DNA of 64,000 nucleotides from Azadirachta indica (Eukaryota; Streptophyta; Magnoliopsida; Sapindales; Meliaceae), in NCBI GenBank assembly GCA_022749755.1, contig CM040450.1, forward strand, positions 10,934,913 through 10,998,912, given 5' to 3'. Position 1 is the stretch's first letter; every line of letters begins with the position of its first letter. Positions 28,032-64,000 of the stretch are shown here, one piece after another. The position numbers and the translations under genes were made by a program. The notes beneath the pieces were generated by a model. It made no database searches. It saw nothing but the letters and a program-made list of their open reading frames with translations, and was not told the origin of the DNA.

Positions 28032-28101
28032 AATACTGACTAAGGAAGAACGGTGCTAGATCTCAACCACAAGTGCATTTCCTTCATGCCAAAATATTCA
28101 G

Positions 28102-28197
28102 GTAAACCAGCACTTATTTCATTTCATCATTTCAGATCGTAAGCTTGTTTTGTTTATTCAATCTTTTTTAATGGTAATCGATGTTTGCTTTTGTTAG
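28102..28197 (+). other. Leader intron of the first DUF247 gene (inferred)
   Basis: Donor after AAATATTCAG (GTAAACC) and acceptor TTTTGTTAG enclose 96 bp in the 5' UTR. The same arrangement is conserved in the copies at about 40950-41043 and 44190-44288, which supports a real intron. It ends 16 bp before the start codon. Confidence 0.5.
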
Positions 28198-28213
28198 GTG
28201 GTAGAACTTTCAG

Positions 28214-29329
28214 ATGGGAAACATCAACTCGATAACATTCGATTCTATTAAAGAACAGAAAGAGACGAGAATTGATGTTGCTGAAACGCTGGAGCTCCAT
28301 CGCCAATGTTGTATTTACAGGGTTCCGAAAAGATTCCGCGAGGCAAAAGAAGAAGCCTACACTCCTAAGGTAATTTCAATAGGCCCTTTTCATCACGGTA
28401 AAGAAGAATTAGGAGCTATGGAAAAGCAGAAAGTAAGATATCAAAGAGAATTTAGTAAACGAATCTCTTCAGATACATGGGAGAAACTCATTAGCTTCAT
28501 AGAAAAATATGAAAATCGTATTCGTAATTGTTATGAAGAGAAGTGTCAGCTTCAAAAACTTGAGTACATAACAATGATTTTGTATGATGCTGTCTTTATC
28601 ATTGAGCTCTTTTTGAAAAATGCCCAAGATCGTATATCCGATTTTTTGTTAGTTAAACCACAAATAAAATATGCTATTCAGATGGATTTGCTACTGCTAG
28701 AAAATCAACTTCCATTCCTTGTCCTCAACGGATTATACATGTTAGCCTTCCCCTACCCTAACCCTGATGGAGAGATTCATCCTTCATTCTTTCAACTTTC
28801 TTGTAAGTTCTTCAGGGATACTATGTTCAATGGAATATCTGAAGAGTTTAGTGTGAAACATTTCTTAGATTTCAGAAGAAGTCTCCTGACAAAAACATAC
28901 CCAACTTCAAAGTCACGAGAATGTATTTCAGATTTACCTTGTGCTGTAAAATTGAACGAGTCCGGAGTGAAGTTTAAAGAACGGACTGACGGAGAATGCT
29001 TACTTGACATTAGATATGAAAAGAGAAAGAGACGAATCCCTTGCTTGAAATTACAAGTCCCCTACTTCTTCAAAGTACATGAGATGAAAATTCCTCGCAT
29101 CGACGTGTTTGATGATACAGAATGCTTCATTCGGAACATAATGGCCTGGGAGCAATGTCATTGTCCGTGGGAAACCCACGTTTGCAATTACATTGATTTC
29201 ATGGATTATCTTATCGACACTAAAGAAGATGTAAACTTGCTTGTTGAAGCAGGAATTATATCTAACGGTGTGGGCGACACTGAAACAGTGGCAAACATGT
29301 TTAATAAACTTGGCCGACAAATTTTCTAA
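28214..29329 (+). CDS. DUF247 (UPF0481) protein, C-terminus lost by frameshift
   Basis: 371 residues, nearly identical to the first 370 of the intact 436-residue copy at 41060-42370. The DUF247 blocks are present: CCIYRVPKRFRE, AYTPKVISIGPFHHG, MEKQKVRY, MILYDAVFIIELF, LLLENQLPF and MAWEQCHCP. At about 29321-29327 one nucleotide is missing compared with the intact copy (CAAATTTTCTAAG against CAAATTCTTCTAAG), so the frame ends at LGRQIF. The next 65 codons, including the C-terminal transmembrane helix, survive in another frame up to 29523. If translated, the product would lack the membrane anchor typical of the family. It could be an early pseudogene or a soluble variant. DUF247 proteins are plant-specific and mostly of unknown function. 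Confidence 0.8.
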   Translation: MGNINSITFDSIKEQKETRIDVAETLELHRQCCIYRVPKRFREAKEEAYTPKVISIGPFHHGKEELGAMEKQKVRYQREFSKRISSDTWEKLISFIEKYENRIRNCYEEKCQLQKLEYITMILYDAVFIIELFLKNAQDRISDFLLVKPQIKYAIQMDLLLLENQLPFLVLNGLYMLAFPYPNPDGEIHPSFFQLSCKFFRDTMFNGISEEFSVKHFLDFRRSLLTKTYPTSKSRECISDLPCAVKLNESGVKFKERTDGECLLDIRYEKRKRRIPCLKLQVPYFFKVHEMKIPRIDVFDDTECFIRNIMAWEQCHCPWETHVCNYIDFMDYLIDTKEDVNLLVEAGIISNGVGDTETVANMFNKLGRQIF

Positions 29330-29523
29330 GTAGCTCCTGTTTCTATGACACTGCTATGGATCTGAAAAGACATTACAACAATCCCTGGAATCATGCAAAG
29401 GCAACATTAATAACGGCTTATTTTACCAATCTGTGGAGAGGCACTGGGACTATTGCTGCAATTGTGCTACTACTGCTCACTTTGGTACAAACTGTATTTT
29501 CCATTTTGGAGGTTGTGTTGTAA
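29330..29523 (+). pseudogene. Detached C-terminal part of the first DUF247 gene
   Basis: In the shifted frame this encodes the family tail: SSCFYDTAMDLKRHYNNPW, then TNLWRGTGTIAAIVLLLLTL and a stop at 29521-29523. It matches the end of the copy at 41060 with few changes (for example LIRVYF has become LITAYF). It is not reachable from the upstream frame without a frameshift or unusual splicing. Confidence 0.75.
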
Positions 29524-31034: not shown

Positions 31035-31043
31035 CTATAAATA
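31035..31043 (+). promoter_or_regulatory. TATA box of the TM9SF-like gene
   Basis: CTATAAATA, a consensus TATA element, lies 95 bp upstream of the start codon and predicts transcription start near 31065-31070. Its preservation argues that the gene has been transcribed until recently. Confidence 0.6.
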
Positions 31044-31129
31044 CCGCAACCTGATTGACTAACAGAATTTCCCTCCATTTCGAAACCATTCAAAACTTCT
31101 CCCTCTCTTTACTTAGTGTCCGTACAACA

Positions 31130-34100
31130 ATGGCTGTGGATCGAACAGGGTGCTTCTTTCTCACATTGATAACAGCTCTGTTGCTTTGGGGGATGTGTAT
31201 TCATAATCCTGAGCTCTTTACACGCGAGCTTCCGTTGAAAGAAGGAGATCTCATTCCTTTGTTCACTAATCGTTTCATTCGCTGTTTCAGCTGGTAATCT
31301 CTTAACTAGCAGTTCATGGTTCGGTTACGCATTAATGATTTTGTTTCCGGATATATGTCTGTTTGGTTACCGAGAAAATGGCGGAAAAGAAAAGAAAAGG
31401 TTAAATCTTTAGGAGTTCTATAGTTTCTGTTAATTAATTTTGTATAAGAAAGATTACAAGAAGTAATTAACTCAATGATTTGCAGTTCTTCAATTTGTGC
31501 TCTCAGCGGTTTTTCAGCACTTTGTTCAGTACAAAGCTTCTCTTTTGGTGTGCTTTCTCAGTGTTTTGCATTTGTTATTTCTGTTTCTACATTAATTAAT
31601 AGGCTTTATCAATAAATTTTGTACCAAATATCTTGTTTGCTCGCCAAGAATTTACAGGAAAAGAAAAAGAAGAGAAATCTTGTATTGTGTTGTGTGTTGA
31701 AGAGGTTAGACAAAGCCACTCAATGACTTGGTGATTGCCTGTGTTGATTGATTTCAGTATGATTTGTTGTTATTATTTTTATTATATATTTTTCTAATTT
31801 TGATTCAAATCTTCTGTTTGGTTGAAGGAAATTGAGAGCTCGTGAAGTTGTCTGTTTTCTGTTAAATTTTGTATTAAGAAGATTGTAAAGAGTGATTCAA
31901 CGAATTTTCTTGTTCTTTTATTTTGATATCAATTTATTAGTTAAGTTCTTGCAAATGTTTTGTTTGGTTGATGAGAAAATGAAGGAAAAGAAAAGAAAAA
32001 CGAAACCTTGAGGAGTCTTTTTGTCCTTTGTTAATTGATGTTTGTTAATAATTATAAAATATAATTCTGTGATTGTAGTTGATTATAGTCGTTTGACTCT
32101 GTGTTTTTCAGGCCTTGAATGATTACATATTCTGAATCAGCTTATGATTCCTCATATTTTTCTTACATTTTCGAGAGTGTCCACTAGAGCGTGAAAAAAT
32201 TTCTGTTTTGGATGTTTTTTTAACTTTAGAAGGCCTATAAACGCTAAGCTTTGAATATTCAGAGTTTGTATATTCCGTAACCTGACGTTGTGTTTGACTC
32301 CCAAGAAAATGAAGGAAGAAGGAAACAAACGAAATTTTGATCAGCTCTCTGGTTTTTGTTGCTAGAAAATGAAAAGATCAAAATATTCTGAGTTCATATA
32401 TTCTGCATGTTGACATTGTGTTTGATTCCCGAGAAAATGAAGGACGCAGGAAACAAACAAAATCTTGACCAGTTCTGTAGCTTTTGTTGCTAGAAAACAG
32501 AAAAATCAACTCTCTGAGACTTGTAGTTTGTTATGTCTAGCACACAGAAGTTTTAACTCACTGATCATTTTTCATCTGAAAAATAAGATAATTGTGCGCT
32601 TCAACTTGTTATTTGATTCGAGTCTTTCCTACTGGCAGTTCGAAGAACCACTCGTATGAGTTGCCATTCTGCGCTGCTGGAGGTGAAGGTTTATTTTTAA
32701 TTTATGATATAATGCTTTGTCATATATATTATGCAGGGGCACCATTTTTACTTCTGCTTTTACTGGGATAAAGCTTAAGAATAATTATTACAAATGCTGT
32801 GTCCCGCTGAAAACAGTGATTAGCTTGCTATTAATTTGGGAGATCCTATCAAATTAAAATGTACATAGACAACAAAGGATTTTCTCTTTATTTCTTGACT
32901 AGGTAATTATTATCATCTCCATGCACTGTACCAAACATGTAATAACTTGGAATTTCCATGGATTACAGACCCAATACCCATCAGGAAGAAATCCCTGGGA
33001 GAAATTGTAGCCGGTGATTGCTTTACTAGGACTCAGTATGAGCTGAAATTCAAAGTAGGAACAGTTGGGAAGATCCTTTGTGAGAAAACCCTGACAAAAG
33101 CTGAAGTAGAAACGTTTTAGGCTAGCAGTCATCGAAAAGCCCAGTACTGGATGAGCTTTAACAACATTCTCTTTCTCACAAATGTGGGGTTTGTGGATCC
33201 CATTAATTTTCCTCAAGATTTAGGGCCCCGGTATTATCTTGTTAAACACATTGACTTTTATCTCCTGTACAATGAGAACCAAGTGGTGGACATAAAATCT
33301 ATCAGTGACTTACATTCTGCGGTAAATATAACTGAAGATGCTGAAATCACTGTCAACTTTACCTATTCCGTCTTCTGGAAAAATTCTACAATCAAAAGCA
33401 GAAAGTCTATCTCTCGGACTGGAGCTGCAATCAAGATAGAGTGGTGGAATTCAGAAGAGAAAAGCGGGAAAATTACGTTCAAACCAGTGGTATTTTGGGT
33501 ACTCAACTTGTTCTTAGGGTTTTCGTTTCTTGCTGTGCTAATTTTTAAGTATCTCACACCTAAGATCAGGTATGTAATCTGTCATTTTTCATTTCCTCAA
33601 GAAAGAATGGCACCTTAATGTCATTTCTTTATCTTAATATCTGTCACCTGCAGCAACATTTCCTGTTCAGGGCCCGAATCCAGCCAACCTGCAGGCTTGC
33701 ATGTTCCTGCATACCGATGGTTGCTTGGTGCCATTCTGGGCTTTGGAACTCAGCACTTGATAATGTAATTATTTTGTAAATAACTCTGCTGTTCAATGTA
33801 TTGCATGCTTCTGACTTCATTAAAGTTAGAATTTTTGTGCTTATTCTGTACATAAATCTGGGATCAGCATACTTCTTAATTCTCCTAATTACCCATGCAG
33901 GATCTGTTTCGCCTTTATATTCGGCTTTCATGATGTTTTTTATCGCTTGGTTCTTGGCCCGAGGACTACAGTTTTGCTTGTCTTCAGCCTCCTATTTTCA
34001 TATTTAGCCTACGATGTTGCTTCATGTCATAGAAAACAGATTCTAAACAGAAACAATGGCCTGGTAAATCAGCATATCTCTTGTATGGTACTTCTTCTTT

Positions 34101-34977
34101 TAACCTTCAGATCGTATGGTAGTAGCTCATGCCTTTTTCATCATAAGGTGAATGATTTTTCTTGCAGGCATATAACCTTCCAAACATTGGGATTGGAAAA
34201 TATATCGTGATGATGTTCCTAACGATTGTGGGTGTTGACCAATTGGCCAAGTGGGCTTTTGGGTCTAATAATATGATCAAAACGATTGCAGTTACTGTTG
34301 TAGTCGCAGCTGCGAGTTTATGGTCATGGTTAATGGGTGCTAGAATGGCATATTCCCTCAACTATCAACATCCAAAACCTAAAATAGCCAGAAAACTTAA
34401 AATGGTGATCCCTTTGTGGCAAAAAAGGCTAATGACTACACCTGCTCAGATGTTTCTTGGAGGCCTCATGCCTTTCCTTGCAATCTTCACAAGAATGGAT
34501 GAAATTTATGCAAGCTTGTTGTCTCTGAAATTTTGCGGGGCCTCTCGTGCTATGCTTTTACCTTTCCTTGCAGTCATCACACTAACTCTAGTGCTGGGAG
34601 CAGGTTTCACAGTTTTTCAACTGAAGAAGAGGGATTTCATTTGGTGGTGGAGGTATTAGCTTTTCTTTAACACATTTTATGATTTTACTCCTTATTATCG
34701 TATATAATAGATAGATAGATGTGCTTAATTTTCTTGTATCTGTCATTGCAGATCTGTGTTACGAGGTGGATCAACTGCCATTTTCATCTTTGCCTACGGC
34801 ATCTACTTCCACTGCAGAGTTGACCAAGACAGTTTTGCCAATCTGTACATATTTTTGGTGTACAATATTTGCTTATGCTGTATTTTCTTTGCAGTTCTTG
34901 GGGCAACAGGTTTCTATGCTTCATTGGTTACGTATTTTCTCTATAATAATCTGCCTGAGCACGGGCGTCAACGATGA
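31130..34977 (+). pseudogene. TM9SF/nonaspanin-like gene with one in-frame stop
   Basis: Seven exons (31130-31293, 32639-32682, 32969-33569, 33654-33764, 33901-34063, 34168-34652, 34752-34977) are phase-compatible and give 597 codons, the normal size of plant transmembrane-9 proteins. Family landmarks are a signal peptide, KEGDLIPLFTN, YELPFC, KKSLGEIVAGD, the luminal part ending with TYSVFW, LLGAILGFGTQH, and a C-terminal multi-pass domain with FQLKKRDFIWWWRS, GGSTAIFIFAYGIYF and GATGFYASL. The only lesion is TAG at 33118-33120, where the family usually has Arg in a TxxEVxxF-R context. Excising the 66-nt GT..AG stretch 33055-33120 would restore the frame but delete a conserved segment. The usual C-terminal KXD/E Golgi-retention signal is absent (ends EHGRQR). 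TM9SF proteins act in the Golgi/endosomal membrane. A working allele with a read error or polymorphism is possible. Confidence 0.75.
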
Positions 34978-35919: not shown

Positions 35920-37179
35920 TCACACAACTTGCAGGATAGAACACACGGCTTGTATCAAAGTGAGCAATAGGAGCACAATCGCAGCAACAGTTGCGGTGCC
36001 TCTCCAAAGATTGCTAAAATAAACCCTTTTCAAGGTTGCCTTAGCATGGTTCCAAGGATTGTCATAGTGTGCTTTCAAATCTTTGATAATTTCATGGTAA
36101 TGTGTATGAGACACAGCAATTTGCATGCACAGTTTATTGAACATTTCTGCTACTCTAGCATTTTCACCCACATGATTGGATATAACTCCCCCTTCAACAA
36201 GTAAGCTTACATCTTCTTCAGTGTTGATGAGTGCATCCATTAGATCAATATAACTGCATACAAGCGACTGACGTGGATAATGACACTGCTCTAAGGCCAT
36301 CACATTTCGAATTAAGCATTCGGTCTCGTCGTATATTTCAATGTGTGGGATTTGCAGCTCATGTACTTCGAACCATGGGATATTGCGTAGCTTTTTCTTT
36401 TCAAATTTCATGTCAACTAAGCATTTTCCTTCAAAACGCTTAAAACTCACTCCTGACTCGTGCAGTTTATGTGCAGAAGGTAAGCATATAGTTGATTTGG
36501 TTGACTCTGTTTGCAGGTGCATCTTTATCATAGAATATCTTTTGAAATCGGTAAAATGTTTAATATCTAGCCCTGCAGGCATTTCATTGAAGAAACCAGG
36601 CCATAAGAATGCACAAGAGAGGGAAAAGAAGGAAGAATAAGGAAAGGCTAGATTATATAATTCATCAAGGACGAAGTATGGAAGCTGATTTTCAAGTAAT
36701 TGCAAATCCAACCAAATAGAAATTCTTGTTTGTGGGTTACTGATAAAAAAGTCAAGTTCATATTTGTTGTAATGTCTCAAAAAAAATTCGATGATAAAGA
36801 TGGCATCATACAGAATCATTGCTACAAATTCAAGTTTTTGAAACTTTGGCATCTCCTGATAACAACTACGAATACGTGGTTCTTGTTTTTCAACGAAGGT
36901 TATCATTTCTTGCCATGTTTGTGGAGTGATTCGTTTACGAAAATCTCCTTTGTATCTTACTTTTTGTTTTTCCATACTAATTAATTCTTCTTTACCATGA
37001 TGGAAAGGGCCTATAGAAATTACCCGAGGAGTGTAGGCTTCTTCATTTATTTTGCGGAGAATTTTAGGAACTCTGTAAATACAACACTCGGCTTGAGGCT
37101 CCAAGTTTTTCTCCATGTCAATCTCCTTGTATTCTTCAATGGAAGCAATTGAGATGAAGTTATTATTTTCCATCTCCAA
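35920..37179 (-). CDS. DUF247 (UPF0481) protein, intact
   Basis: One uninterrupted exon of 419 residues, full length for the family. After the acidic N-terminus come CCIYRVPKILRK, EEAYTPRVISIGPFHHG, MEKQKVRY, MILYDAIFIIEFF, LQLLENQLPYFVL, KLHESGVSF, NVMALEQCHYP, an NTEEDVSLLVEGGVI block, NPWNHAKATLKRVYF and the C-terminal helix in WRGTATVAAIVLLLL, which predicts a single-pass tail anchor. It faces the TM9SF-like gene tail to tail. The start could be Met1 or Met3 (MEMENN); the first gives only two more residues. It is divergent from the 41060 type and more similar in wording to the minus-strand genes at 59 and 63 kb. Molecular function unknown. Confidence 0.92.
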   Translation of the reverse strand: MEMENNNFISIASIEEYKEIDMEKNLEPQAECCIYRVPKILRKINEEAYTPRVISIGPFHHGKEELISMEKQKVRYKGDFRKRITPQTWQEMITFVEKQEPRIRSCYQEMPKFQKLEFVAMILYDAIFIIEFFLRHYNKYELDFFISNPQTRISIWLDLQLLENQLPYFVLDELYNLAFPYSSFFSLSCAFLWPGFFNEMPAGLDIKHFTDFKRYSMIKMHLQTESTKSTICLPSAHKLHESGVSFKRFEGKCLVDMKFEKKKLRNIPWFEVHELQIPHIEIYDETECLIRNVMALEQCHYPRQSLVCSYIDLMDALINTEEDVSLLVEGGVISNHVGENARVAEMFNKLCMQIAVSHTHYHEIIKDLKAHYDNPWNHAKATLKRVYFSNLWRGTATVAAIVLLLLTLIQAVCSILQVV

Positions 37180-38700: not shown

Positions 38701-38721
38701 GAGTATTTGTACTGTGCTTTC

Positions 38722-39424: not shown

Positions 39425-39426
<2 letters not shown>

Positions 39427-40415: not shown

Positions 40416-41059
40416 TTAATAATATTGTATTTCAATGTTGACTTATAGTACGTACGTAGTTAGTGACCTGATCAATTGTTTATAATGCTAATTTGATTCA
40501 CAATATTAACCAGTCTTTCCGGAATTGTTCATAGATTATAAGGACGAATATTTTGTATTAGGTGTACCACCTGCCAACCAATAATGGAAATAAAAATATT
40601 GGTGATTATATTCACACCTTAATCTTACTCAAATTCTCTAAAGTGGTCTTTTTAAATTTACTAAAGCTGACCTTGGATTGGTAACCAATTTCATTTGTTC
40701 ACATGGCATTTGATTAGATCTATGTATACAATAATTGTAATTATCTTATTCAGTAAACCCAACTTGATTATTTAATTTAAGCTGACCTAACAGAGTCTTT
40801 CTTTAATCTCTTGAACTGAATTTTCCTTTTTAGTTTTTACAGAAAAAGAAATGCATAAGCAGATCAAAGAGAACATAAATATTGACCAAGGAAGAACGGT
40901 GCTAGATCTCAACCACAAGTGCATTTCCTTCATGCCAAAATATTTAGGTAAACCAGCACTTATTTCATTTCATCATTTCATATCGTAAGTTCGTTTTGTT
41001 TATTCAATCTTTTTTAATAGTAATCGCTGTTTGTTTTTGTTAGGTGGCAGGACTTTCAG

Positions 41060-42370
41060 ATGGGAAACATCAACTCGATAACATTCGATTCTATTAAAGA
41101 ACAGAAAGAGACGCGAATTGATGTTGCTGAAACGCTGGAGCTCCATCGCCGATGTTGTATTTATAGGGTTCCAAAAAGACTCCGCGAGGCAAAAGAAGAA
41201 GCCTACACCCCCAAGGTAATCTCAATGGGCCCTTTTCATCACGGTAAAGAAGAACTAGGAGCTATGGAAAAGCAGAAAATAAGATATCAAAGAGAATTTA
41301 GTAAACGAATCTCTTCAGATACATGGGAGAAACTCATTAGCTTCATAGAAAAATATGAAAATCGTATTCGTCATTGTTATGAAGAGAAGTGTCAGCTTCA
41401 AAAACTTGAGTACATAACAATGATTTTGTATGATGCTGTCTTTATCATTGAGCTCTTTCTGAAAAATGCCCAAGATCGTATATCCGATTTTTTGTTAGTT
41501 AAACCACAAATAAAATATGCTATTCGGATGGATTTGCTACTGCTTGAAAATCAACTTCCATTCTTTGTCCTCAACGGATTATACATGTTAGCCTTCCCCT
41601 ACCCTAACCCTGATGGAGAGATTCATCCTTCATTCTTTCAACTTTCTTGTAAGTTCTTCAAGGATAATATGTTCAATGGAATATCTGAAGAGTTTGGTGT
41701 GAAACATTTCTTAGATTTCAGAAGAAGTCTCCTGACAAAAACATACCCAACATCACAGTCACGAGAATGTATTTCAGATTTACCTTGTGCTGTAAAATTG
41801 AGCGAGTCCGGAGTGAAGTTTAAGGAAGGGACTGATGGAGAATGCTTGCTTGACATTAGATATGAAAAGAGAAAGAGACGAATCCCTTGCTTGAAATTAC
41901 AATTCCCCTACATCTTCAAAGTACATGAGCTGAAAATTCCTCGCATTGACGTGTTTGATGATACAGAATGCTTCATTAGGAACATAATGGCCTGGGAGCA
42001 ATGTCATTGTCCGTGGGAAACCCACGTTTGCAATTACATTGATTTCATGGATTATCTTATCGACACTAAAGAAGATGTAAACTTGCTTGTTGAAGCAGGA
42101 ATTATATCTAACGGTGTGGGCGACGCTGAAACAGTGGCAAACATGTTTAATAAACTTGGCCGACAAATTCTTCTAAGTAGCTCCTGTTTCTATGACACTG
42201 CTATGGATCTGAAAAGACATTACAACAATCCCTGGAATCATGCTAAGGCAACATTAATAAGGGTTTATTTTACCAATATGTGGAGGGGCACTGGGACTTT
42301 TGCTGCAGTTGTGCTACTACTGCTCACTTTGGTACAAACTGTATTTTCCATTTTGCAGGTTGTATTGTAA
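41060..42370 (+). CDS. DUF247 (UPF0481) protein, intact
   Basis: A single coding exon of 436 residues. The order is CCIYRVPKRLRE (residues 32-43), EEAYTPKVISMGPFHHG, MEKQKIRYQREF, MILYDAVFIIELFL, MDLLLLENQLPFFVL, AFPYPNPDGEIHPSFF, KLSESGVKF, MAWEQCHCPWETHVCNYI, DTKEDVNLLVEAG, NPWNHAKATLIRVYF and the terminal helix TFAAVVLLLLTLVQTVFSIL (about 410-434). One single-pass C-terminal anchor is predicted. The start codon follows a conserved leader intron (donor about 40948, acceptor about 41043) shared with the copies at 28214 and 44300. It is the intact reference for judging the broken copies. The biochemical role is unknown; in grasses some DUF247 genes lie at the S and Z self-incompatibility loci. 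Confidence 0.93.
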   Translation: MGNINSITFDSIKEQKETRIDVAETLELHRRCCIYRVPKRLREAKEEAYTPKVISMGPFHHGKEELGAMEKQKIRYQREFSKRISSDTWEKLISFIEKYENRIRHCYEEKCQLQKLEYITMILYDAVFIIELFLKNAQDRISDFLLVKPQIKYAIRMDLLLLENQLPFFVLNGLYMLAFPYPNPDGEIHPSFFQLSCKFFKDNMFNGISEEFGVKHFLDFRRSLLTKTYPTSQSRECISDLPCAVKLSESGVKFKEGTDGECLLDIRYEKRKRRIPCLKLQFPYIFKVHELKIPRIDVFDDTECFIRNIMAWEQCHCPWETHVCNYIDFMDYLIDTKEDVNLLVEAGIISNGVGDAETVANMFNKLGRQILLSSSCFYDTAMDLKRHYNNPWNHAKATLIRVYFTNMWRGTGTFAAVVLLLLTLVQTVFSILQVVL

Positions 42371-42847
42371 TTGTTTTGGTAACATTGGTAATAATATGTA
42401 ATTTTGCTTTTGATATAAGCTTGTTATTATGATAAATTATGTTTGATTTATATAACATTTTATCAAATATGCATGTGTTCATTAACTTCTTACTTTCAAG
42501 AATTTTGCGGGGGCAATGGCCTTTATCCCTTCCATATTGATGAATTTAAGGAAGTAAATAATTAAAAAGCTTTACATTTGATAATGAGAAATTATTTAAA
42601 TAAAAATGTCCAAAATAAAAAAAATAAAAAATATTTTGTATTATTATAAGACCCCACATGTAATACTTGCTTTATATTGACCTTAATGAATTAGCCCGTC
42701 TTGCGGTAATTTTTTATTGGCATCTGTACCTCAGGACCTCCACCAGTGGTTCCATACCTGGTTATGTTCTCAGCTGCCAACTAATACATTTATTTATTTA
42801 TTTATTTATTTATTGAGAATCAACTGTTAATTTATTTCAACTCTTTG

Positions 42848-43270
42848 AGAGTCTTTTGATAAAATCCTTTCAAAAAATAATTCTTTTTTTAATAAAAGTA
42901 AAATAAATTTTTTAATTCTCTAACTTATTCTCTAATAACAGTCAAATAACTAAAAAAAAATAATTAAAAAACACTTTGAATAATGAGGTAAACTCTTTTA
43001 ACCAATAGAGAAGTTGTTAAATCTATTTGATTTAACTTTTTTAGAAAAACTTCTTAGATTAAATCTTTTACAAGTAAAATTTTTATAATTAAAGTTTTTA
43101 ACCAAAAAAATTACTGATTGTTGGACTGTTCCAACTATTCTCTAACTAAAATTTTTAATTATATTAATAAATATGGTTTTTAAAGTTATATTATAAGTAA
43201 AATGAATTAAAAATTTTAAAATAAAAGTATTTTAGACAATTTAACTATTTAATTGAAAAAGCTCAAAGTT
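42848..43270. mobile_element. MITE-B copy 4
   Basis: Starts GAGAGTCTTTTGATAAAATCC, at exactly the position of copy 3 behind the paralogous gene, and continues with AATTCTTTTTTTAATAAAAG and TTTTTATAATTAAAGTTTTTAAC. It shares a longer stretch with 46438-46860. No ORF. Confidence 0.5.
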
Positions 43271-43397
43271 TATTAAACACGTCTGCTATTCTATCACTGT
43301 CGCCCACTACACCACTAATTACAATTCCAGCTTCAGCAAGCAAATTTACATCTTCTTCGTTGCTGATAAGATACTTCATGAAGTTAATGTTGCTACT
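43271..43397 (-). pseudogene. DUF247 3'-end relic at a duplication junction
   Basis: About 127 bp match 47527-47653 inside the minus-strand gene at 47308-48625 (ATTCTATCACTGTCGCCCAC, CACCACTAATTACAATTCCA, AAATTTACATCTTCTTCGTT). Similarity ends abruptly on the right. It corresponds to part of the C-terminal third of the protein only, with no N-terminal counterpart nearby. Confidence 0.75.
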
Positions 43398-50191: not shown

Positions 50192-50247
50192 ATGGCACGC
50201 AGGCGCTCTCGGCCTCACCTTCATTTTCTTCCGGCCAAAGTATCAAG
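50192..50247 (+). other. Leader exon of DUF247 locus 6, with an in-frame ATG
   Basis: ATG at 50192 opens MARRRSRPHLHFLPAKVS and runs to AGTATCAAG before GT at 50248. Splicing to the acceptor CTCTAG at 50951-50952 gives an in-frame join (AG plus G, then ACC CAA AAC) with the DUF247 frame. Part of the exon (CTCTC..CTTC..TTTTCTTCCGGCCAAA) is shared with 55830-55870 before locus 7, where it has no ATG, so it was probably a 5' UTR exon originally. Confidence 0.45.
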
Positions 50248-50952
50248 GTTTGTTCTATACTTGTTTCCTTTTACTTTATTAATTTATGTTTTTTTGATAA
50301 TCTCTATGATATATTTTTGTCCATACTAGTTTTTATAATATCAACAATAACCTTTTTTTAATTTAGACTCGTATGTTTTGAATATTTATTTAAATTTAAT
50401 AACTTGTACCTAGATTTATTTTCTAAAAATGCATGCTTTTATATTGTTATTAGCAATCTAATGTTAAATAACTGTGTTATATGAATCTATTAACAGTATT
50501 AGTACTATATTTGTGTCAATAAAAATGGATTGACATTATAACATGTATTTATCAATAGTAGGAATATAAATTTCTATACCCAATTCTCGTATATAAACTA
50601 AGATGGCAGTTAGGTAGTACAATTACACTATTGTCGTCACACATATCCTCTATATTTTATTTTATTCTTGAGAATTTGTTTCTACTATCATAGAAAATGA
50701 TATACTATAATGATATTTTGTATGATTAAATTTGTATACATAACAATATTGATATGCATCATTGTTAGCTATAATCCATACGTATAATTGAGGCACAAAG
50801 AATGATGGACAATAATTGGTCGTATTCAACATATTTTATTTATAGATGTGCACAATGTATACTGAATCTTGAGTGATTATATAATTACCAAATTGCTTGG
50901 AGTCTTTTTCTTTCTAGTTTTGTCATTAAGTCTGTTTTATGTTACTCTCTAG

Positions 50953-52269
50953 GACCCAAAACGTGGAGAAGGAAAAGAATAACTTAATAACAATTGCTTC
51001 AGTTGAAGAACGCAAAGAACTACTAATTCACAAGGATGAAATTTTGGAGCCTCAGCCTGAATGTTGCATTTACAGGGTCCCGAAAGATCTCCGCAATATA
51101 AATAAAGCAGCCTACACACCTAAAGTAATTTCAATAGGTCCTCTTCATCATGGTAAAAAAGAATTAGCTGATATGGAAAAGCAAAAAATGAGATTTAAAA
51201 GAGAATTCAGCAAACGAATCTCTGTGGAGAAATGGCAAGAATTTATAACTTTTGTAGAAAGGCATGAGAAACGTATCCGTAATTGTTACGAAGAGAAGCC
51301 TAAGTTTCAGAAAATAGAGTTGATAACAATGATTTTATACGACGCTATCTTTATCAACGAACTCTTTTTGAGGAATTTTTATATCATTCAAAGTGAATTT
51401 TTGCTTCTTAAACCGCGACTTAGAGCTGCTATTCGTTTGGATTTGCAACTGCTCGAAAACCAGCTTCCCTACTTTCTCCTCAAGGGATTATACACATTAG
51501 CTTTTCGAGAGCCTAACCCTAAGGCAGAACGCTAACCTCCTTTCTTTTTGCTTGCCTGTTTATTCTTCCAAGATGGTATGTTCAATGGGATACCTGAAGA
51601 GGTAGAAGTTAAACATTTCACTGATCTGAGGAGATATATTCTAACAAGAATTTATCCGAAGCGATCTTTCGGATTTCCTGGAAATTTACCTTGTGCTCAC
51701 AGGCTGCAAGAGTCAGGAGTGAAGTTTAAAGGTGTTGCAACACAGTGCTTACTTGATCTGAAATTTGAAAAGAAAATGCTACGAATTCCATACTTCAATT
51801 TTTTCAAGATCCCAATCTGGAAAGTCTGTGAGCTGCAAATCCCACGATTTCAAATTGTTGATGGGACAGAATGCTTGATTCGAAATGTGATGGCTTTGGA
51901 GAAGTGTCACTACCCATTGCAACCCACGTATGCAATTATATTCATCTACTAGATATTCTTATTGACACTGAAGAAGATGTTGAATGTCTCGTTGAAACAG
52001 GAGTCATATCAAATTATATGGGCGACAGTAAAACAGTGGCAAATATTATTAATAAACTTTGCCTACAAATCAGCGCAAGTCCTTCCTGTTACTTCGAGAT
52101 TATAAAGGGTCTGAAATCACACTATGACAACTCTTGGAACCATGCTGAGGCAACTTTGAGAAGTGTTTATTTCAGCAATCTTTGGAGAGGGACAGCAACT
52201 TTTGCTGCAATCATGCTTCTTTTTCTTACTTTGATACAAACAATATGTTCCATTCTGCAAGTTGTTTGA
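50953..52269 (+). pseudogene. DUF247 gene with a nonsense codon and a frameshift
   Basis: The conserved start (GAG-ATG-GAA-AAG at locus 7) reads GAG-AAG-GAA-AAG here, so the usual Met is gone. The frame is open from 50939 through CCIYRVPKDLRN, AYTPKVISIGPLHHG, MEKQKMRFKREF, MILYDAIFINELFL and LQLLENQLPYFLL to a TAA at 51533-51535, where relatives have a sense codon before PSFF. The same frame continues through FFQDGMFNGIPEE and VKHFTDLRRY to about 51921, where one nucleotide is missing in CAACCCACG and the frame moves. The last part (to 52269) keeps NYIHLLDILIDTEEDVECLV and the helix TFAAIMLLFLTLIQTICS. Two lesions plus a lost start make it a pseudogene. Confidence 0.85.
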
Positions 52270-55879: not shown

Positions 55880-56051
55880 TACTCCACAACTTTATTTAGT
55901 TGTAATTTATGCTGTGATGTTCTGAATCTCTTGTATTTAAATTCCTATATGAGTAATAATTCATACTGCCGAGAATTTTTAAAGAATTCAATACACCCCA
56001 TTTTGATTGATGTGATTGATGTTTCCTTTGGTTTTGACACAGAACTTGGAG

Positions 56052-57322
56052 ATGGAAAAGAATAACTTAATAACCATTGCTACTATTGAAGAATACAAGG
56101 AGTTGCAAATAGACATCAAGAATATCGTGGAGCCTCAACCAGAGTGTTGTATCTACAGAGTTCCTACAAAACTCCGTGAAATAAATGAAGAAGCATACAC
56201 CCGTAAGGTAATTCAATAGGTCCAATTCATCACGCTAAAAAAGAATTAGCTGATATGGAAGGCAAAAAATAAGATTGAAAAAAGAATTTAGGAAACTAAT
56301 TACTACAGAAATATGGCAAGAACTTATAATATTCATAGAAAGAAATGAACAGAGTATCCGTAATTGTTATGAAGAATTGTGTCATCTTGAAAACTAGAGT
56401 TTATTGTAAGGATTTTATATGATGCTATCTTTATCATTGAACTCTTTTTGAGATATTACCATAAAAACAAAAGTGATTTTTTGCTAAAGAAACCTCGAGT
56501 GAGTGTAGCAATTTGGTTACTCTTGCAATTGCTAGAAAATCAACTTCCATACTTTGTCCTAAAGGGATTATACATGTTAGCTTTCCCGGACCATAACCCT
56601 AGTGGAGGGAACTATCCTTCTTTCTTTTTACTCTCTTGTAAATTCTTCCATGACACCATGTTCAGTGAAATTCCTACTGAGGTTGCAGTTAAACATTTCG
56701 TCGATTTAAGAAGATATGCCATAATAGCGATGTGCTTCAAAACAAAGTCAAAAGGTTCAAATATAGATTTACCTTGTGCGGTCAAATTGCATAAGTCTGG
56801 AATGAAGTTTAAGCATGTATTGAAGGAGAATGCTTGCTTAAAGTAAGATTTGAAAAAAAGCCATGCATCCCACGCATTACAATAAATGATGAGACTGAAT
56901 GCTCGATCAGAAATGTGATGGCCTTTGAACAGTGTCACTATCCATGTGAAATACATCTGTGCAATTATATTGCTTTAATGGGGTATCTCATCAACAAAGA
57001 AGAAGATGTGAATTTGCTGATTGAAGCAGGAGTTAAATCCTATCATGTGGGCGACAATGCTGCAATAGCAAAGATGTTTAACAGACTGTGCTAACATATT
57101 AGTTTAAGTCATTCTCGTTCTTATGATATTATCAGAGATTTGAAATCATACTATGATAATCCTTGGAACCATAGTAAGGCAATGTTGAGAAGTGTTTACT
57201 TCAATAATTTTTGGAGAAGCACTGGAACTATTGCTGCAATTGTGCTCCTATTGCTCACTTCTATACAAACCATATGTTCTATTTTTGCTCACTTCTATTT
57301 TTGGAGATGTACTTTGCAGTAA
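56052..57322 (+). pseudogene. DUF247 gene, heavily degraded
   Basis: Starts normally (MEKNNLITIATIEEYKE, CCIYRVPTKLRE, EEAYT) but loses the frame at about 56211 (GTAATTCAATAG for GTAATTTCAATAG), again at about 56262 (GGAAGGCAAAA) and at about 56392 (CTTGAAAACTAG). The frame from 56448 gives LLQLLENQLPYFVL, FFLLSCKFFHDTMF and VKHFVDLRRY, breaks near 56838, and resumes with NDETECSIRNVMAFEQCHYP and NKEEDVNLLIEAG. TAA at 57092-57094 replaces a family Gln. The final helix TIAAIVLLLLTSIQTICS is still readable but its end is altered by a local repeat of GCTCACTTCTAT. At least four indels and one nonsense codon make it the oldest of the gene-length pseudogenes here. Confidence 0.87.
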
Positions 57323-58678: not shown

Positions 58679-58679
58679 C

Positions 58680-60470
58680 AATAAAAAAATTAATTCAATC
58701 TTTATCATCTACTAAACTTGAATTTTTCAAAATTGGAAGTCAAACATTGATTAAGGTAATCTTATTAATTTGGTGAGAGTAATAGTTTGTTTAATTGAAG
58801 GATTTTTTGTTTCTTGGTCGTGTATAAGATGTGAAGCCTGAAGGTCTCCACACTAAGCTATATTTTATTCAAAAACATCATTTATAAAACGTGCGATGAA
58901 CTAATCAATTCTGCGAATAATATTTTAAAAACAACTGAAATTAATTTAATTACTCTTTTGAGAATTGATAATTATAATTTATAATCAAAGATCAAATTGA
59001 ATAAAAGAAAAACATATCAATTTTTATCAAATCGAGGTGAAGAATGGATACACTGCAAATGATTAAACATTTTTGGACATTGAAATGATATAATGAGCAA
59101 ACCAGAATTATTACAACCACAAGCACGAATTACAAAAGTAGAACCAACTACAGAAATTAATCACACGACTTGAGAAATAGAACATATAGTTTGAATAAAA
59201 GTGAACAATAATAGCATAATTGCAGAAATAGTTCCGGTGCCTCTCCAATAATTGCTAAAATAAACCCTTTTCAAAGTTGCCATAGCATGATTCCAAGGAT
59301 TTTCGTAGCGTGCTTTCAATTCATTGACAATATCTCTGTGACAGGAAGGACTTGAACTTATTTGTAAGCCAAGTTCATTAAACATCTTGACTACTCTAGC
59401 ATTGTCGCCCACATGATTGGATATAATTCCAACTTCAACAAGCAAAATTACATCTTCTTCAATGTTGATAAGATAATCCGTTAGAGCATTATAATTGCGA
59501 AAGAGAGTTTCCGATGGATAGTGGCATTGCTCCAAGGCCATCATGTTCCAAATCAAGTACTCTGTCCTATCGATTACTGTAAGGCATGGTGTTTGCAACT
59601 CATTATGAACTTGCAGCCATGGGATCCTTCCTGTTTTCTTTTCAAATTTGACGTCAAGCAAACCTTGTCCTTTAATACTCCTGAACTTCACAGCAGACTC
59701 TTGCAATTTGAGTACGCAAGGGAAGTCTATTGGTAATTCGCTTGAGTGTGATTGAGGGTACGTCTTTGTTAAAATACATCTTCTCAAATCAACAAAGTGC
59801 TTAACTTCTATCTCCTTAGGTCTTCCGTTGAACATATTATTGTAGATGAACAGACAAGAAAGTGAAAAGAAAGAAGGATAGCTTTTTCCTTTAGGGTTCG
59901 GTTTCGGAAGGGCTAACATGTATAATCCATCAAGGATGAAGTATGGAAGCTGATTTTCCAGTAATTGCAAGTCTCAACGGATATAGCTCTTAGTCGTGCA
60001 TTTGTAAGCAAGAAGTCACTTTTTCTCTTGCGGCGTCTCAAAAACAACTCAATAATAAAGATAGAATCATATAAAATCATTCTTACAAAATCAAGCTTTT
60101 GAAATTTAGGCATATGATTGTAACAATTACGGATGTATTGTTCGTGCATTTCTGCAAAATCTATAAGTTCCTGTCATTTCTCTGGAGTAATTCGTTTAAT
60201 AAACTCTTTTTTTAATCTTATTTTCTGCTTTTCCATGTCACCTAATTCCTTTTTACCATGATAAAGAGGGCCTATGGAGATTATCTGAGGAGTGTAAGCC
60301 TCCTCTTTTGTTTTGCGGAGATCCTTAGGCACCTTATAAATACAACGTTCTGATTGCGGTTCCAAATTTTCCTCGATGTCAATCAGCCACACTTCGTGCT
60401 CTTCAATTGAATCAATTGTTATGAAGTCATTCTTTTCCATCTCTTACGGTCCTATTCATAGAAGCAAAGG
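58680..60470 (-). repeat. Segmental duplicate, copy 1 (pairs with 62720 onward)
   Basis: The 3' flank and gene share order and sequence with 62720-64000: AATTAATTCAATC, CATCTACTAAA, TCGAGGTGAAGAATGGATAC, ATATAATGAGCAAACCA, then the DUF247 C-terminus. The offset is about 4.05 kb. The duplicate continues beyond the right edge of the window. Confidence 0.65.
59161..60440 (-). pseudogene. DUF247 gene with a nonsense codon and a frameshift
   Basis: From the right: MEKNDFITIDSIEEHE, CIYKVPKDLRK, EEAYTPQIISIGPLYHG and MEKQKIRLKKEF, then TGA (60174-60176) where relatives have Trp in a TPEKWQEL context. The same frame continues (MHEQYIRNCY, FVRMILYDSIFIIELFL, LLTNARLRA) until a one-base change in length at about 59970-59985. 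The remainder (59161-59970) reads LLENQLPYFILDGLYMLAL, VKHFVDLRRC, MALEQCHYPSETLF, NIEEDVILLVEVG and the helix TISAIMLLLFTFIQTICS. It is close to the gene at 63194. Two lesions in an otherwise full-length gene. Confidence 0.85.
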
Positions 60471-62719
60471 TCACTAATTAATTATGAAAATCGAATAGAC
60501 CCTCAAAATGATATAATTCAATGTGCTTTTTTTCAAGTTATGTTTTCTTTTAGTTTCTTACCTCATTGCTTATTTACTAAGCTAATAATAAACCAATGAG
60601 AGAGGTAAGTCAAAGCAATTTAGAATATGTTATGGAGTATTGTGTCATGATTTTCATAACTATTAAATAAAATTAAAGGTGATGTCAAAACACATTCTCT
60701 TTAATTATCCTATTGAAATATATTAAAATTTTAAAAAAATCTTATAATCCTATTAATTTAAAAAATTGACCTGGATTGCCTTACATAAATTCTAATTTTC
60801 AAACTTTTTTAGTTAATAAAATGATAATCCAAGACTACAGTAAAAAAAGAAAGATCTTTGAAAAGAGAACATTTTAGTAATAATAAGTTTGTTTTCTTTA
60901 CTTTTCAATTCTTATACATTTATAACCAATGCAGCAATTAAGTATAAAAAATAGTTAGAAAGAACATCTCAAAACAAGTGCTGAGTTTACCTGAAAACTT
61001 TTCTTCAGAAAAAAAAATAGTGGAATGATTGAGATCACCAAATCTGTAATTTTGGATCGAATATATATTTTTCTTTCTCCCTCTCTAAGTCTCTCTTTGA
61101 CAATATTTTTGCTTCGATTCCACCCTAATTTATAGAAAGAATTTAATGTCACTCACTGTTTCTCTAGTTTATAATTTAATCACATATTGGTCTACATATT
61201 ATTGAAAATATACAAATACCACCTCAATACTCCTATTGATCATTTAAAAAGAATGCATCAAAATTAAAATAACCCAATAAAAGAAATATAAAATTATATT
61301 ATTCACTTAGTATCATTTCTACTAATCAATTTTAAAATAAAAATAATAATCGCTCGCTTCATTTTCAACAACTGAGTTCTTTCTTGATTTGCCCATCATT
61401 GTAAACAACATTGTATTGACTATTTTTATGTTTTTCTAAAAAATTTAGTTAAACTAAATGTTACAGAATTTGTAGTAATATTATCCTCAATGTATTTAGT
61501 GTTTTTGTATTTTTTTTTGAATAGAAATGATCAAGTTTATTTGTATTAGTTGTTACAAGTTATACAATAATCTTATTTTATAAATTTATTTATTATTAAA
61601 AGCTTAGAAAATAATTGTATTTTAGTATATTAGAAATTTTAACAATTTTTAGGTGATAATTGTATATTATTAAAAAATTTAGGTAATATTTTTATATTTA
61701 TTAAAAATATTTTGATCAAGGTGTAATTACATAGACTTAAAAAGAAAAAATAAAATTATTTTTTGATGTATAAAAAGGTGGTCCTCTCAATAATTCAACT
61801 CTGTTTACCTCATTAATTGAATACCAAAATGCCATGTGCAGAGACTGGCAATTCAAGTACCACGCAACATTAAAAGAGGTAATTAAAAAAAAAAAAGGAA
61901 AAATGAAAAATGAAAAATGAAAAAAGTGGAGTAGTTGACACGTACTCTTTGATGGACAGCAAGCCTTTTTATTCTGAGTAATACGAATTCATGATTTTTG
62001 TATAATTTTTAAATTTTTTTAAAAGTTATGATATTAGTTATTAACAGTGAATCATTATCTGACTTTTAAATAAAATAATAATATTTTAATAAAAAAATAT
62101 TAAAAAAAATATTTAATAATTATTTTTAAAGTGAATATAAATATTATTTATGCAATAAAATAAAGGTTGAGATGTTATTACCTTCGAGGATGAGCGAAGA
62201 TTTAGATGATTTAGGCAATTAAAAAAATTGCAGTGAGAGAGGGAAAGCTACATAGCAGAAGAGACAAAGGGGATGTATGAGTTGACTGGAGGACGTACTT
62301 GTTGTCTCATTTAATCGTCTAAGGACAATTTAATAAAAGCATACAAAAAAGTTTATTTTCCATCTCTGAGTGATGGACTTCGCGGATAATTGTTCAAATC
62401 ATCCGTTAAAGGAAATAATAGGGTATTGTAAAAGCCTTAGGGGTAATCAAGGATTTGCTCTAAAATAAAAAAAGATCCCAAAATTTTAACTATTTTTAAA
62501 ATTTTTCAAAGAAGCCGGAAAAGAAAAGGGTTCAATGGCAACAAAAATATTCACATTGTGTTCATACCCGGAAATAATTTTTCTCCAAGTATCTAATTTT
62601 TCATATGAGCAAAGCTTTTAAACAGAATGCAAGGGTTCGAAAATGAGTTTCAACAAAGGGGTAGGCTATAATTAAAGGGTTTAAAAAATGATTTTCAAGT
62701 ATTTAACCTGCAGGGATAA
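60441..62719. other. Intergenic region between DUF247 loci 8 and 9
   Basis: Promoter side of locus 8, then AT-rich DNA. A short tandem GAAAAATGAAAAATGAAAAA run lies at about 61899-61927. A 65-codon ORF at 60955-61152 is not supported. No gene seen. Confidence 0.4.
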
Positions 62720-64000
62720 ACTGTCGCTCTAAACAAATTAATTCAATTCTTTCATCTACTAAAAACTTGGAATTTTCAAAATAAAAAGTCAAACGTTAAC
62801 TAAGATAATCTATTAATTTTCAGTGAGTCACAATTTTTCAATTGAAGGGATTTGTCCTTTTCTTTTTTCTTTTTTAGTGTATAAGAACTGAAGTTTGAAC
62901 CTCCCTCGCAATTTTATATAATTTTATCCAAAACATCATGTATAAAATGTTAAATGAACTAAAGAATTTTGTGAATAAAGAAACTGAAATAAATTTAATC
63001 ACTCTCGTAAGAATTTATTATTAAAAACATAACTAAAAAGAAAAAAAATATAAAAAAAAATGAGAACATAATAATAATCATATCCAGTCGAGGTGAAGAA
63101 TGGATACACTGCAGAAGATTCAACATATTTCGGCATTGAAATTATATAATGAGCAAACCAAATTTATCACAAATAGAAGGATATACAAATTAATCACTCA
63201 TTTACAACTTGCATGATAGAACATAGGGCTTGTATGAGAGTAAGGAATAAGAGCATAAGTGCAGCAATAGTTCCAGTGACTCTCCAATTCCTAAAATAAA
63301 CCCTTTTTATATTTACAATAGCACGATGCCAAGGATTTTTGTAATGTTCTTGCAGATCCTTGACAATGTCATTGTAACATGAAGGCCAACTTAAATAATT
63401 ATTTAGGCGAAGTTCATTAAACATCTTGACTATTCTAGCATTGTCGCCCTTATAATTGGATATAATTCCAGCTTCAACAAGCAAATTTACATCTTCTTCA
63501 GTGTTGATAAGATAATCCATCAGAGCAATATAATTACAAACGTGGGTTTCCGACGGATAGTGGCATTGCTCCAAGGCCGTCACGTTTCGAATCAAGCACT
63601 CTGTCGTATCGCCTACTTTCAGTTCTGGCATTTTCAACTCTTTATGGACTGGCAGCCATGGGATCCTTAGCTTTTTCTTTTCAAATTCAACATCAAGTAA
63701 CCCGTGTCCTCTAATACACCTAAACTTTACACCATACTCTTGCAATTTTAGTACAGAGGGTAATTCTATTGGAAATCCTTTGCGGTACGATTGAGGGAGC
63801 CTCTTTGTTAAAACACATCTTCTCAAATCAACAAAATGTTTAACTTCCATCTCCTTAGGAGGGCTTCCACGGAACATACTATCATAGAAGAACATATAAG
63901 AAAGTGAAAAAAAGGAAGGGTGGCTTTGCCCACGAGGTTCAGGTTTTGGAAAGGCTAAGATGTATAATTTGTTAAGAATGAAGTATGGAAGTTGATTTTC
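62720..64000 (-). repeat. Segmental duplicate, copy 2 (cut by window edge)
   Basis: Homologous to 58680-60000 in the same orientation, including about 450 bp of 3' flank and the 3' part of a DUF247 gene. Confidence 0.65.
63194..64000 (-). CDS. DUF247 (UPF0481) protein, C-terminal part, runs off the window
   Basis: The frame is open from the stop at 63194-63196 to the last base of the window (269 codons, without a stop). It starts inside the conserved ENQLPYFIL block and continues with AFPKPEPRG, PSFFSLSYMFF, VKHFVDLRRC, LKLQEYGVKF, NVTALEQCHYPSETHVCNYI, NTEEDVNLLVEAG and the terminal helix TGTIAALMLLFLTLIQALCS, ending MQVVNE. A complete gene would add about 170-190 residues beyond the edge. 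An internal oddity is LRLNNYLSWPSC where relatives have LGLQISSSPSC, a small insertion or change. Unlike its close relative at 59161 it shows no lesion in the visible part, but the unseen N-terminal part could be broken. Confidence 0.85.
   Translation of the reverse strand, partial: ENQLPYFILNKLYILAFPKPEPRGQSHPSFFSLSYMFFYDSMFRGSPPKEMEVKHFVDLRRCVLTKRLPQSYRKGFPIELPSVLKLQEYGVKFRCIRGHGLLDVEFEKKKLRIPWLPVHKELKMPELKVGDTTECLIRNVTALEQCHYPSETHVCNYIALMDYLINTEEDVNLLVEAGIISNYKGDNARIVKMFNELRLNNYLSWPSCYNDIVKDLQEHYKNPWHRAIVNIKRVYFRNWRVTGTIAALMLLFLTLIQALCSIMQVVNE

What the first reader, a model, noticed from the sequence alone, without database searches (positions are those of the whole stretch)
28032..64000. 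DUF247 birth-and-death cluster: nine gene-length loci and two relics in 36 kb
Seen: eleven DUF247-derived loci on both strands, of which only two are intact and one is open to the edge; the others show all stages from a single 1-nt deletion to multiple indels. Known: DUF247 genes at the grass S and Z loci are tied to self-incompatibility, and DUF247 families elsewhere are variable between accessions. Inference: this is a rapidly turning-over locus, likely presence/absence polymorphic, possibly under diversifying selection.
Basis: partly seen in the sequence, partly recalled or inferred. Interest (0 to 1): 0.75.

Follow-up and report, generated by a model that had tools for sequence, protein, structure and literature searches.

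The report
Fast-changing DUF247 gene cluster, probably neem
A tree, most likely neem, carries a long row of related membrane-protein genes of unknown function, about half of them broken, and two assembled copies of part of the row differ in which genes they hold; rows like this are already known from other trees, and nothing found here shows that it controls self-fertilisation.

Summary
In detail: window 28032-64000 holds nine gene-length DUF247 copies and two relics. Two copies are intact, six are broken (1 to 5 lesions each), and the one cut by the edge is intact beyond it (429 aa). In the window's own genome (280.8 Mb, probably neem) the array runs about 233 kb, with 24 gene-length copies, 11 open. 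Nine lineages have Melia orthologues, so old lineages are mixed with young copies.

A second block on the same contig is colinear with 11.046-11.201 Mb (53 mismatches in 28,117 compared columns). Best read as the other haplotype, it lacks two open copies and holds two others in duplicate, so gene content probably segregates there. The window's own copies have no second block to compare with.

Diversifying selection is not established: standard site tests are very strong (2dlnL 54.9), but the signal mostly vanishes once site-rate variation is allowed (3.3, p = 0.19).

Nothing ties the cluster to self-incompatibility. The proteins have no N-terminal hydrophobic segment and a membrane segment at the extreme C-terminus, which suggests tail anchoring with the main domain in the cytosol (inferred). 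Similar arrays are published in oak.

The parts
28214..29520 (+). c1, DUF247 copy, broken by one 1-nt deletion near 29322; open frame to 29329 encodes 371 aa without the C-terminal membrane segment
28032..30131 (+). duplication unit around c1, 95.1% identical to 40878-42975
31139..34926 (+). TM9SF/EMP70-like gene in pieces, inside the DUF247 array, in-frame stop at 33118-33120; similar neighbourhood in Citrus (by gene names)
35920..37173 (-). c2, intact DUF247, 417 aa
39179..39348 (-). DUF247 relic; overlapping stretch 79% to c2 DNA over 167 columns
41060..42370 (+). c3, intact DUF247, 436 aa; used for the structure models
40878..42975 (+). duplication unit around c3
43257..43523 (-). DUF247 relic
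44300..45593 (+). c5, DUF247 copy broken by an 11-nt deletion near 44984; sister to Melia 22017
47320..48625 (-). c6, DUF247 copy broken by a 2-nt deletion near 48286
50192..50248 (+). possible first exon of c7 (19 aa, three matched pieces from homologues, best Melia 22013)
50945..52266 (+). c7, DUF247 copy with an in-frame stop at 51533-51535 and a 1-nt deletion near 51921; orthologue of Melia 22013
56037..57283 (+). c8, DUF247 copy with four frameshifts and a stop
59164..60440 (-). c9, DUF247 copy with a stop near 60174 and a frameshift near 59974
63194..64000 (-). c10, DUF247 copy open to the window edge; intact (429 aa) when read in the genome to C11:10999395

Best explanation
This is the left end of a roughly 233-kb tandem array of DUF247 genes evolving by birth and death in a Meliaceae tree, most likely neem. 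Copies arise by local duplication, survive for long under purifying selection, then are broken or deleted.

Shown: copy number, lesions, orthology with Melia, and different gene content in two assembled blocks. Inferred: that the two blocks are the two haplotypes, so that content segregates in the population.

Most likely way of working (inferred): each intact gene makes a protein of about 420-440 residues without a signal peptide, inserted after translation by one C-terminal membrane segment, probably at the plasma membrane, with its large conserved domain facing the cytosol. Variable loops around c3 residues 137-141, 181-189, 201-212 and 228-239 would carry specificity for partners that differ between copies. 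Redundancy among copies lets single genes die.
For: Array and census: 24 gene-length copies, 11 open over their aligned length, in C11:10.963-11.196 Mb. Duplicated units at 95% (c1/c3) and 94% (c20/c21). Orthologous Melia partners, all with starred support, for c5, c7, c12, c15, c23, c24, c26, c27 and the c17/c20/c21 group. Whole-gene dN/dS 0.43 for 9 window copies and 0.52 for 13 open copies.

Terminal branches of the six broken window copies are not elevated (0.39 against 0.49 for the rest, p = 0.13), so those genes probably worked for most of their life. Stops (c7, c8, c9) and an 11-nt deletion (c5) are not single-base read errors in runs. Noncoding c1-c3 flanks show 7 indels to 46 substitutions, no indel excess in the window.

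Block B against A: 53 mismatches in 28,117 columns over 14 pieces; c21 and c24 absent from B.

Topology: 118 of 120 proteins have a C-terminal hydrophobic segment, 0 of 120 one in the first 40 residues. Arabidopsis SR3G sits at the plasma membrane, and fragments without its C-terminal segment go to nucleus and cytosol (PMC11952752, passages).

Variability: 28 of the 41 most variable residues within 31-400 lie in loops, against 147 of 370 overall (p = 9e-5).
Against: Block B could be a recent segmental duplication instead of the other haplotype; read depth was not available, and flow cytometry gives 385 Mb, larger than the assembly. Small indels between A and B are about as many as substitutions, so lesions seen in one block only (c14, c17, one in c18) may be assembly errors, and the single small indels in c1 and c6 cannot be excluded as errors. 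Whether the doubled c16-c17 stretch in B is real is unsettled: the variant sites are mixed. Positive selection is not established, and its candidate sites are not enriched in loops (9 of 19, p = 0.32). 63 of 120 proteins show a further hydrophobic stretch at a threshold of 1.6; the model places it as a helix at 115-137, but a second membrane pass is not excluded. A published InterProScan prediction for grass DUF247 names a non-cytoplasmic domain and a small cytoplasmic one (PMC9825253, passages). No expression data.
Confidence: 0.7

Rival explanations
1. Part of the apparent decay is assembly error: residual long-read indels break intact genes on paper.
For: The neem assembly that fits this genome used PacBio RSII, Canu, Racon and Pilon (PMC9069239, passages). 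Between A and B there are 10 indels to 12 substitutions in two pieces, and in the c17 trio small indels outnumber substitutions. c14 and c17 are broken in A only, by small indels, and open in B.
Against: In the window the c1-c3 noncoding ratio is 7 indels to 46 substitutions. c7, c8 and c9 carry stops and c5 an 11-nt deletion. c15, c16 and c26 share all lesions in both blocks, and five copies are open in both.
Confidence: 0.25
2. The array is part of a self-incompatibility locus like the grass S and Z loci, as proposed for oak, with DUF247 copies as pollen determinants.
For: DUF247 genes are the male determinants in grasses (PMC13033167, PMC9623065, passages). Oak authors proposed a non-self recognition role for a large DUF247 block (PMC9018854, passages). 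Variable loops exist here too.
Against: No small secreted single-exon ORF with four cysteines in the window or in 263 kb, and with two cysteines 3 found against 1-4 in 10 simulated sets; grass sS/sZ genes have one intron and would be missed. Proteins are 417-437 aa in the four measured, against 508-559 aa in grass SI-DUF247. Rutaceae, in the same order (placement recalled), use S-RNase (PMC12403065, passages). Counterparts in A and B differ little: 53 of 28,117 columns, 27 of these in two pieces.
Confidence: 0.06
3. Block B is a recent segmental duplication elsewhere on the chromosome, not the other haplotype; then gene content differs between loci, not between chromosomes of a population.
For: The assembly paper reads its Ks peak near 0.01 as recent duplication, and flow cytometry gives 385 Mb. 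Both blocks lie on one contig, about 11 Mb apart.
Against: That assembly is 281 Mb against a k-mer estimate of 165 Mb with 0.896% heterozygosity, which retained haplotigs would give. Equal-scoring pairs of places recur within contigs. The first 3,000 bases of the contig read N, which fits a contig placed at a scaffold end but may also be masking.
Confidence: 0.2
4. The copies are mutually redundant and nearly expendable; turnover is neutral after relaxation and content differences have no phenotype.
For: 42-45% of codons fit omega 1 in M1a. 13 of 24 copies are broken. No robust positive selection.
Against: 48-58% of codons are at omega 0.13-0.18, 11 copies have stayed open, and many positions are conserved across 109 aligned sequences.
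Confidence: 0.3

Closest known systems
Quercus lobata DUF247 block (PMC9018854, passages seen)
   Same: Large local tandem block of complete and partial DUF247 genes, mostly high divergence between copies, general conservation of blocks with a related species
   Different: Oak block has 34 complete and 22 partial genes; here a Meliaceae array with an explicit lesion census, a second assembled block with different gene content, and a TM9SF gene inside
Grass S and Z locus SI-DUF247 (PMC13033167, PMC9623065, PMC9825253, passages seen)
   Same: Pfam PF03140, membrane segment (C-terminal in PMC9623065), variable loops, broken copies in some species
   Different: 417-437 aa in four measured copies against 508-559; many copies instead of a pair; no linked secreted peptide found by a weak scan; no link to pollen or stigma shown
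Arabidopsis SR3G At3g50160 (PMC11952752, passages seen)
   Same: DUF247 gene in a locus with other DUF247 genes, C-terminal membrane segment; plasma membrane when full length
   Different: Negative regulator of root suberisation and salt resilience; not shown for any gene here
Asparagus SOFF (PMC5665984, passages seen)
   Same: DUF247 family, arose by duplication
   Different: Single Y-linked female suppressor; no sex linkage tested here

Membership tests
DUF247 (PF03140) | Match above Pfam gathering score over most of the profile | tested here: met
   c1, c2, c3: 299-354 bits against 24.8; c10 317 bits
DUF247 (PF03140) | C-terminal membrane segment | tested here: met
   118 of 120 proteins, including all 13 open copies of this array
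Tandem DUF247 array of the oak kind | Local block of many complete and partial copies | tested here: met
   24 gene-length copies plus pieces in 233 kb
Grass-type SI-DUF247 locus | Two DUF247 genes with a small secreted stigma peptide gene | tested here: inconclusive
   No single-exon candidate above chance; the grass gene has one intron, so the scan would miss it
Grass-type SI-DUF247 locus | Protein of 508-559 aa | tested here: not met
   417, 436, 429 and 437 aa for c2, c3, c10, c11; range
Grass-type SI-DUF247 locus | Hypervariable alleles co-segregating with incompatibility | not testable with these tools
   Only two blocks; counterparts differ at 53 of 28,117 columns
Grass-type SI-DUF247 locus | Pollen expression | not testable with these tools
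   No expression data held
Tail-anchored membrane proteins | No N-terminal signal, single membrane segment near the C-terminus | tested here: inconclusive
   0 of 120 with an N-terminal hydrophobic segment, 118 of 120 with a C-terminal one, median 10 residues after it, but 63 of 120 pass the threshold at another place
Tail-anchored membrane proteins | Large domain in the cytosol | not testable with these tools
   Default topology inferred; SR3G localisation agrees but does not prove it
Pseudogene (six window copies) | Disabling lesions in the DNA itself | tested here: met
   Stops in c7, c8, c9 and an 11-nt deletion in c5; c1 and c6 rest on one small indel each and are less sure

The most novel reading that the evidence does not exclude
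DUF247 arrays in trees are a membrane-tethered, cytosol-facing recognition family with haplotype-specific gene content, closer in style to plant immune-receptor clusters than to a surface receptor for self-pollen. Broken copies that lose only the anchor, such as c1, could be released to cytosol and nucleus as decoys.
Probability: 0.12. Interest if true: 0.75.

Novelty: new member of a known kind. Interest (0 to 1): 0.4.

Why it matters
DUF247 is a large plant family without a known biochemical role, and in grasses it decides which pollen is rejected. A tree array with a census of live, dying and absent copies, orthologues in Melia and a probable second haplotype gives a place to test whether such arrays behave as recognition loci. 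It also shows a trap: strong site-model evidence for diversifying selection mostly disappeared when site-rate variation was allowed, which may affect other claims for this family. The topology question (cytosolic or extracellular domain) bears directly on the grass receptor model.

Tried and rejected
1. A recent burst of gene death: considered when only the window was known, because its six broken copies carry few lesions. Dropped after the full census, where counts run 1, 1, 1, 1, 2, 2, 2, 4, 5, 11, 12 over 11 broken copies (c14 and c17, broken in A only, were left out).

2. Positive selection: M2a and M8 strongly preferred, checked against 60 null simulations with a reduced fit, significant in each third of the protein with its own tree and with gap flanks dropped, yet not robust to gamma rate variation (M1a+G to M2a+G 3.3, p = 0.19; M8a to M8 with G 4.7, p = 0.03; M7 to M8 with G 20.6, p = 3e-5, branch-length ratios held fixed). 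The 9-copy window set alone was not significant (4.35, p = 0.11). No sliding window over 8 of the 9 window copies (c1 left out) reached dN/dS 1 (0 of 86). Candidate sites are not enriched in loops (9 of 19, p = 0.32).

3. c10 as relaxed or diversifying: the least-squares branch value of 1.01 (95% 0.48-3.02) fell to about 0.56 by likelihood, not different from the rest (p = 0.30); the test against 1 in that call failed numerically (nan). c5 alone is higher (0.71, p = 0.03), one of several comparisons, uncorrected.

5. Linked secreted peptide: 0 single-exon candidates with four cysteines in the window or in 263 kb; 3 with two cysteines in 263 kb against 1-4 in 10 simulated sets.

6. TM9SF search of the own genome: unanswered four times and dropped.

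7. Literature: no paper with DUF247 and Sapindales or with neem, Meliaceae and self-incompatib in this library; none of the 12 rows listed contains DUF247. PMC10221614 and PMC11184719 were seen in a search listing only.

8. Two 10-kb DNA searches were swamped by repeats and did not list their own place; shorter queries were used instead.

9. B's doubled c16-c17 stretch as a proven tandem duplication: not claimed. At three variant sites the B copies agree against A, at others A agrees with one of them, so haplotypes assembled in series remain possible.
Full report
What is there. tblastn with two window proteins and with 120 homologues, plus a frameshift-aware alignment, gives nine gene-length DUF247 copies and two relics in 28032-64000. 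Pfam PF03140 matches the three copies tested at 299 to 354 bits against a cut-off of 24.8. c2 (417 aa) and c3 (436 aa) are open from ATG to stop; c1, c5, c6, c7, c8 and c9 are broken; c10 runs off the edge.

Where it is. The closest named proteins are Melia azedarach genes of one numbered series (OWV82_022013 to 022035; 11 of the 120 listed hits). The window lies at C11:10934913-10998912 of a 280.8-Mb genome in 21 contigs. The published neem assembly is 281 Mb on 14 chromosomes, from PacBio RSII reads polished with Illumina, with 0.896% heterozygosity, a k-mer size of 165 Mb and a flow-cytometry size of 385 Mb (PMC9069239, passages).

Whole array. The genome search lists 105 DUF247 matches (103 of 278 first-look candidates scored, so a lower bound). 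200 kb to the right, overlapping the last 912 window bases, were fetched. Together with the window they hold 24 gene-length copies and several pieces from 10.963 to 11.196 Mb. In this block, called A, 11 are open over their aligned length without stop or frameshift (c2, c3, c10, c11, c20, c21, c22, c23, c24, c25, c27) and 13 are broken; ATG-to-stop frames were checked for c2, c3, c10 and c11 among the open ones. c10, open in the window, is intact over 429 aa.

Second block. C11:28-191 kb is colinear with 11.046-11.2008 Mb. Over 14 compared pieces there are 53 mismatches in 28,117 columns, 27 of them in two pieces. Of 13 gene-length A copies in this stretch, 11 have a B counterpart and two (c21, c24) have none; direct DNA searches found there at best 94% (the counterpart of c20) and 77%. 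Of the 11 pairs, five are open in both, four are broken in both (c15, c16 and c26 with all lesions shared, c18 with one of A's two), and two (c14, c17) are broken in A only, by small indels. B carries c16 and c17 twice, 31.4 kb apart; at three variant sites the two B copies agree against A, at others A agrees with one of them, so a true tandem duplication is not proven. c24 has a Melia orthologue, so its absence from B is best read as a loss. The retained-haplotype reading is favoured by the assembly's excess over the k-mer size and by recurrent equal-scoring pairs within contigs, weakened by the larger flow-cytometry size, and not proven.

Error control. Between A and B small indels are about as frequent as substitutions (10 to 12 in two pieces), which may mark residual long-read error, so small lesions seen in one block only are doubtful. 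In the window the comparison of c1 and c3 flanks gives 7 indels to 46 substitutions, no such excess. Stops in c7, c8 and c9 and the 11-nt deletion in c5 stand; c1 and c6 each rest on one small indel.

History. In a tree of 52 proteins the copies fall into several old lineages. c7 pairs with Melia 22013, c12 with 22014, c5 with 22017, c15 with 22019, c23 with 22035, c24 with 22023, c26 with 22028/22020, c27 with 06765, and c17/c20/c21 with 22018, all with starred support. c2, c6, c8 and others have no close Melia partner among the 12 Melia proteins used. c1 and c3 are a young pair (dS 0.066). With 0.15 indels per substitution, about 2.2 disabling lesions are expected per 0.01 neutral substitutions per site. 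So 11 broken copies (c14 and c17 left out) have been dead for about 0.004 to 0.054, the six in the window for 0.004 to 0.022, against terminal-branch dS of 0.025 to 0.48 for the window copies. This rests on one calibration. The broken copies' terminal branches are not faster in dN/dS than the rest (0.39 against 0.49, p = 0.13).

A TM9SF (EMP70) gene in pieces, with a stop at 33118, lies between c1 and c2. In Citrus sinensis the predicted protein KPL70_018550 joins a DUF247 N-terminus to a TM9SF part and is numbered next to DUF247 gene KPL70_018551. In Ulmus minor a TM9SF gene and ABI5 are numbered four apart. So the array may sit in an old neighbourhood; this rests on gene names, not on DNA.

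Selection. M0 omega is 0.43 for the 9 window copies and 0.52 for 13 copies open in at least one block (11 from A, two from B). On the 13, M2a beats M1a by 54.9 with 8.9% of codons at omega 2.7; 60 null simulations with a reduced fit gave at most 7.0 against 54.2 for the data. It holds in each third of the protein, with gap flanks dropped, in 11 broken copies (20.6) and in all 24 (85.4; B versions for c14 and c17). But with gamma rate variation among sites the null model alone gains 40 log units and the difference falls to 3.3 (p = 0.19); M8a to M8 keeps 4.7 (p = 0.03) and M7 to M8 20.6 (p = 3e-5). I conclude that site rates are uneven and that positive selection is not established. The codon-model code was written here.

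Protein. AlphaFold2 gives a confident model (pLDDT 89.0, pTM 0.85; residues 30-400 alone 91.8 and 0.89): a mostly helical domain with a small sheet and a C-terminal helix 407-435. 118 of 120 proteins (107 homologues and 13 open copies) have a C-terminal hydrophobic segment and none one in the first 40 residues; 63 also pass the threshold elsewhere, in most listed cases near the core helix 116-134. By general knowledge of membrane insertion (recalled), a protein with no signal sequence and one segment at the extreme end is tail-anchored with its domain in the cytosol. SR3G behaves accordingly (PMC11952752, passages). A grass paper predicts a non-cytoplasmic domain by InterProScan (PMC9825253, passages). 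The open frame of c1 ends after 371 residues, without the anchor.

Self-incompatibility. Grass S and Z loci pair two DUF247 genes with a secreted stigma peptide (PMC13033167, PMC9623065, passages). No single-exon candidate above chance was found here; since the grass peptide gene has one intron the test is weak. Citrus, in the same order (placement recalled), uses S-RNase (PMC12403065, passages). Oak authors have already proposed a recognition role for a DUF247 block (PMC9018854, passages), so the idea is not new.

Verdict. Birth and death is well supported, content polymorphism is probable for the neighbouring part, diversifying selection is not established, and a self-incompatibility role is unsupported. 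It is a well-documented new member of a known kind of gene array.

Noticed in passing
C11:1-200000 and C11:11.046-11.201 Mb (outside the window); C2 16.60-16.69 and 24.53-24.63 Mb: The held genome contains near-identical or equal-scoring pairs of stretches within contigs, best read as retained second haplotypes; the published Ks peak near 0.01 may partly be this.
   Followed up: partly
31139-34926: TM9SF/EMP70-like gene inside the DUF247 array, with an in-frame stop; in Citrus a predicted gene fuses a DUF247 start to a TM9SF part.
   Followed up: partly
15873-17045: ABI5-like bZIP exon, open and single copy in the genome; in Ulmus ABI5 and a TM9SF gene are four gene numbers apart, which suggests an old neighbourhood.
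   Followed up: partly
7109-7768: Germin-like cupin gene on the minus strand, one open frame.
   Followed up: no
306-1007 and 9256-9947; 24089-24558 and 25149-25612: Dispersed repeats at 72-82% identity, the first pair inverted; probably transposable elements. One copy of the first pair lies in a stretch of 22% GC.
   Followed up: no
32254-32509: Two-copy 128-bp tandem repeat between pieces of the TM9SF gene.
   Followed up: no
50192-50248: Nineteen-residue match to the start of a Melia protein (three matched pieces in all), 0.7 kb before c7: some DUF247 genes of this group may have a short first coding exon.
   Followed up: no
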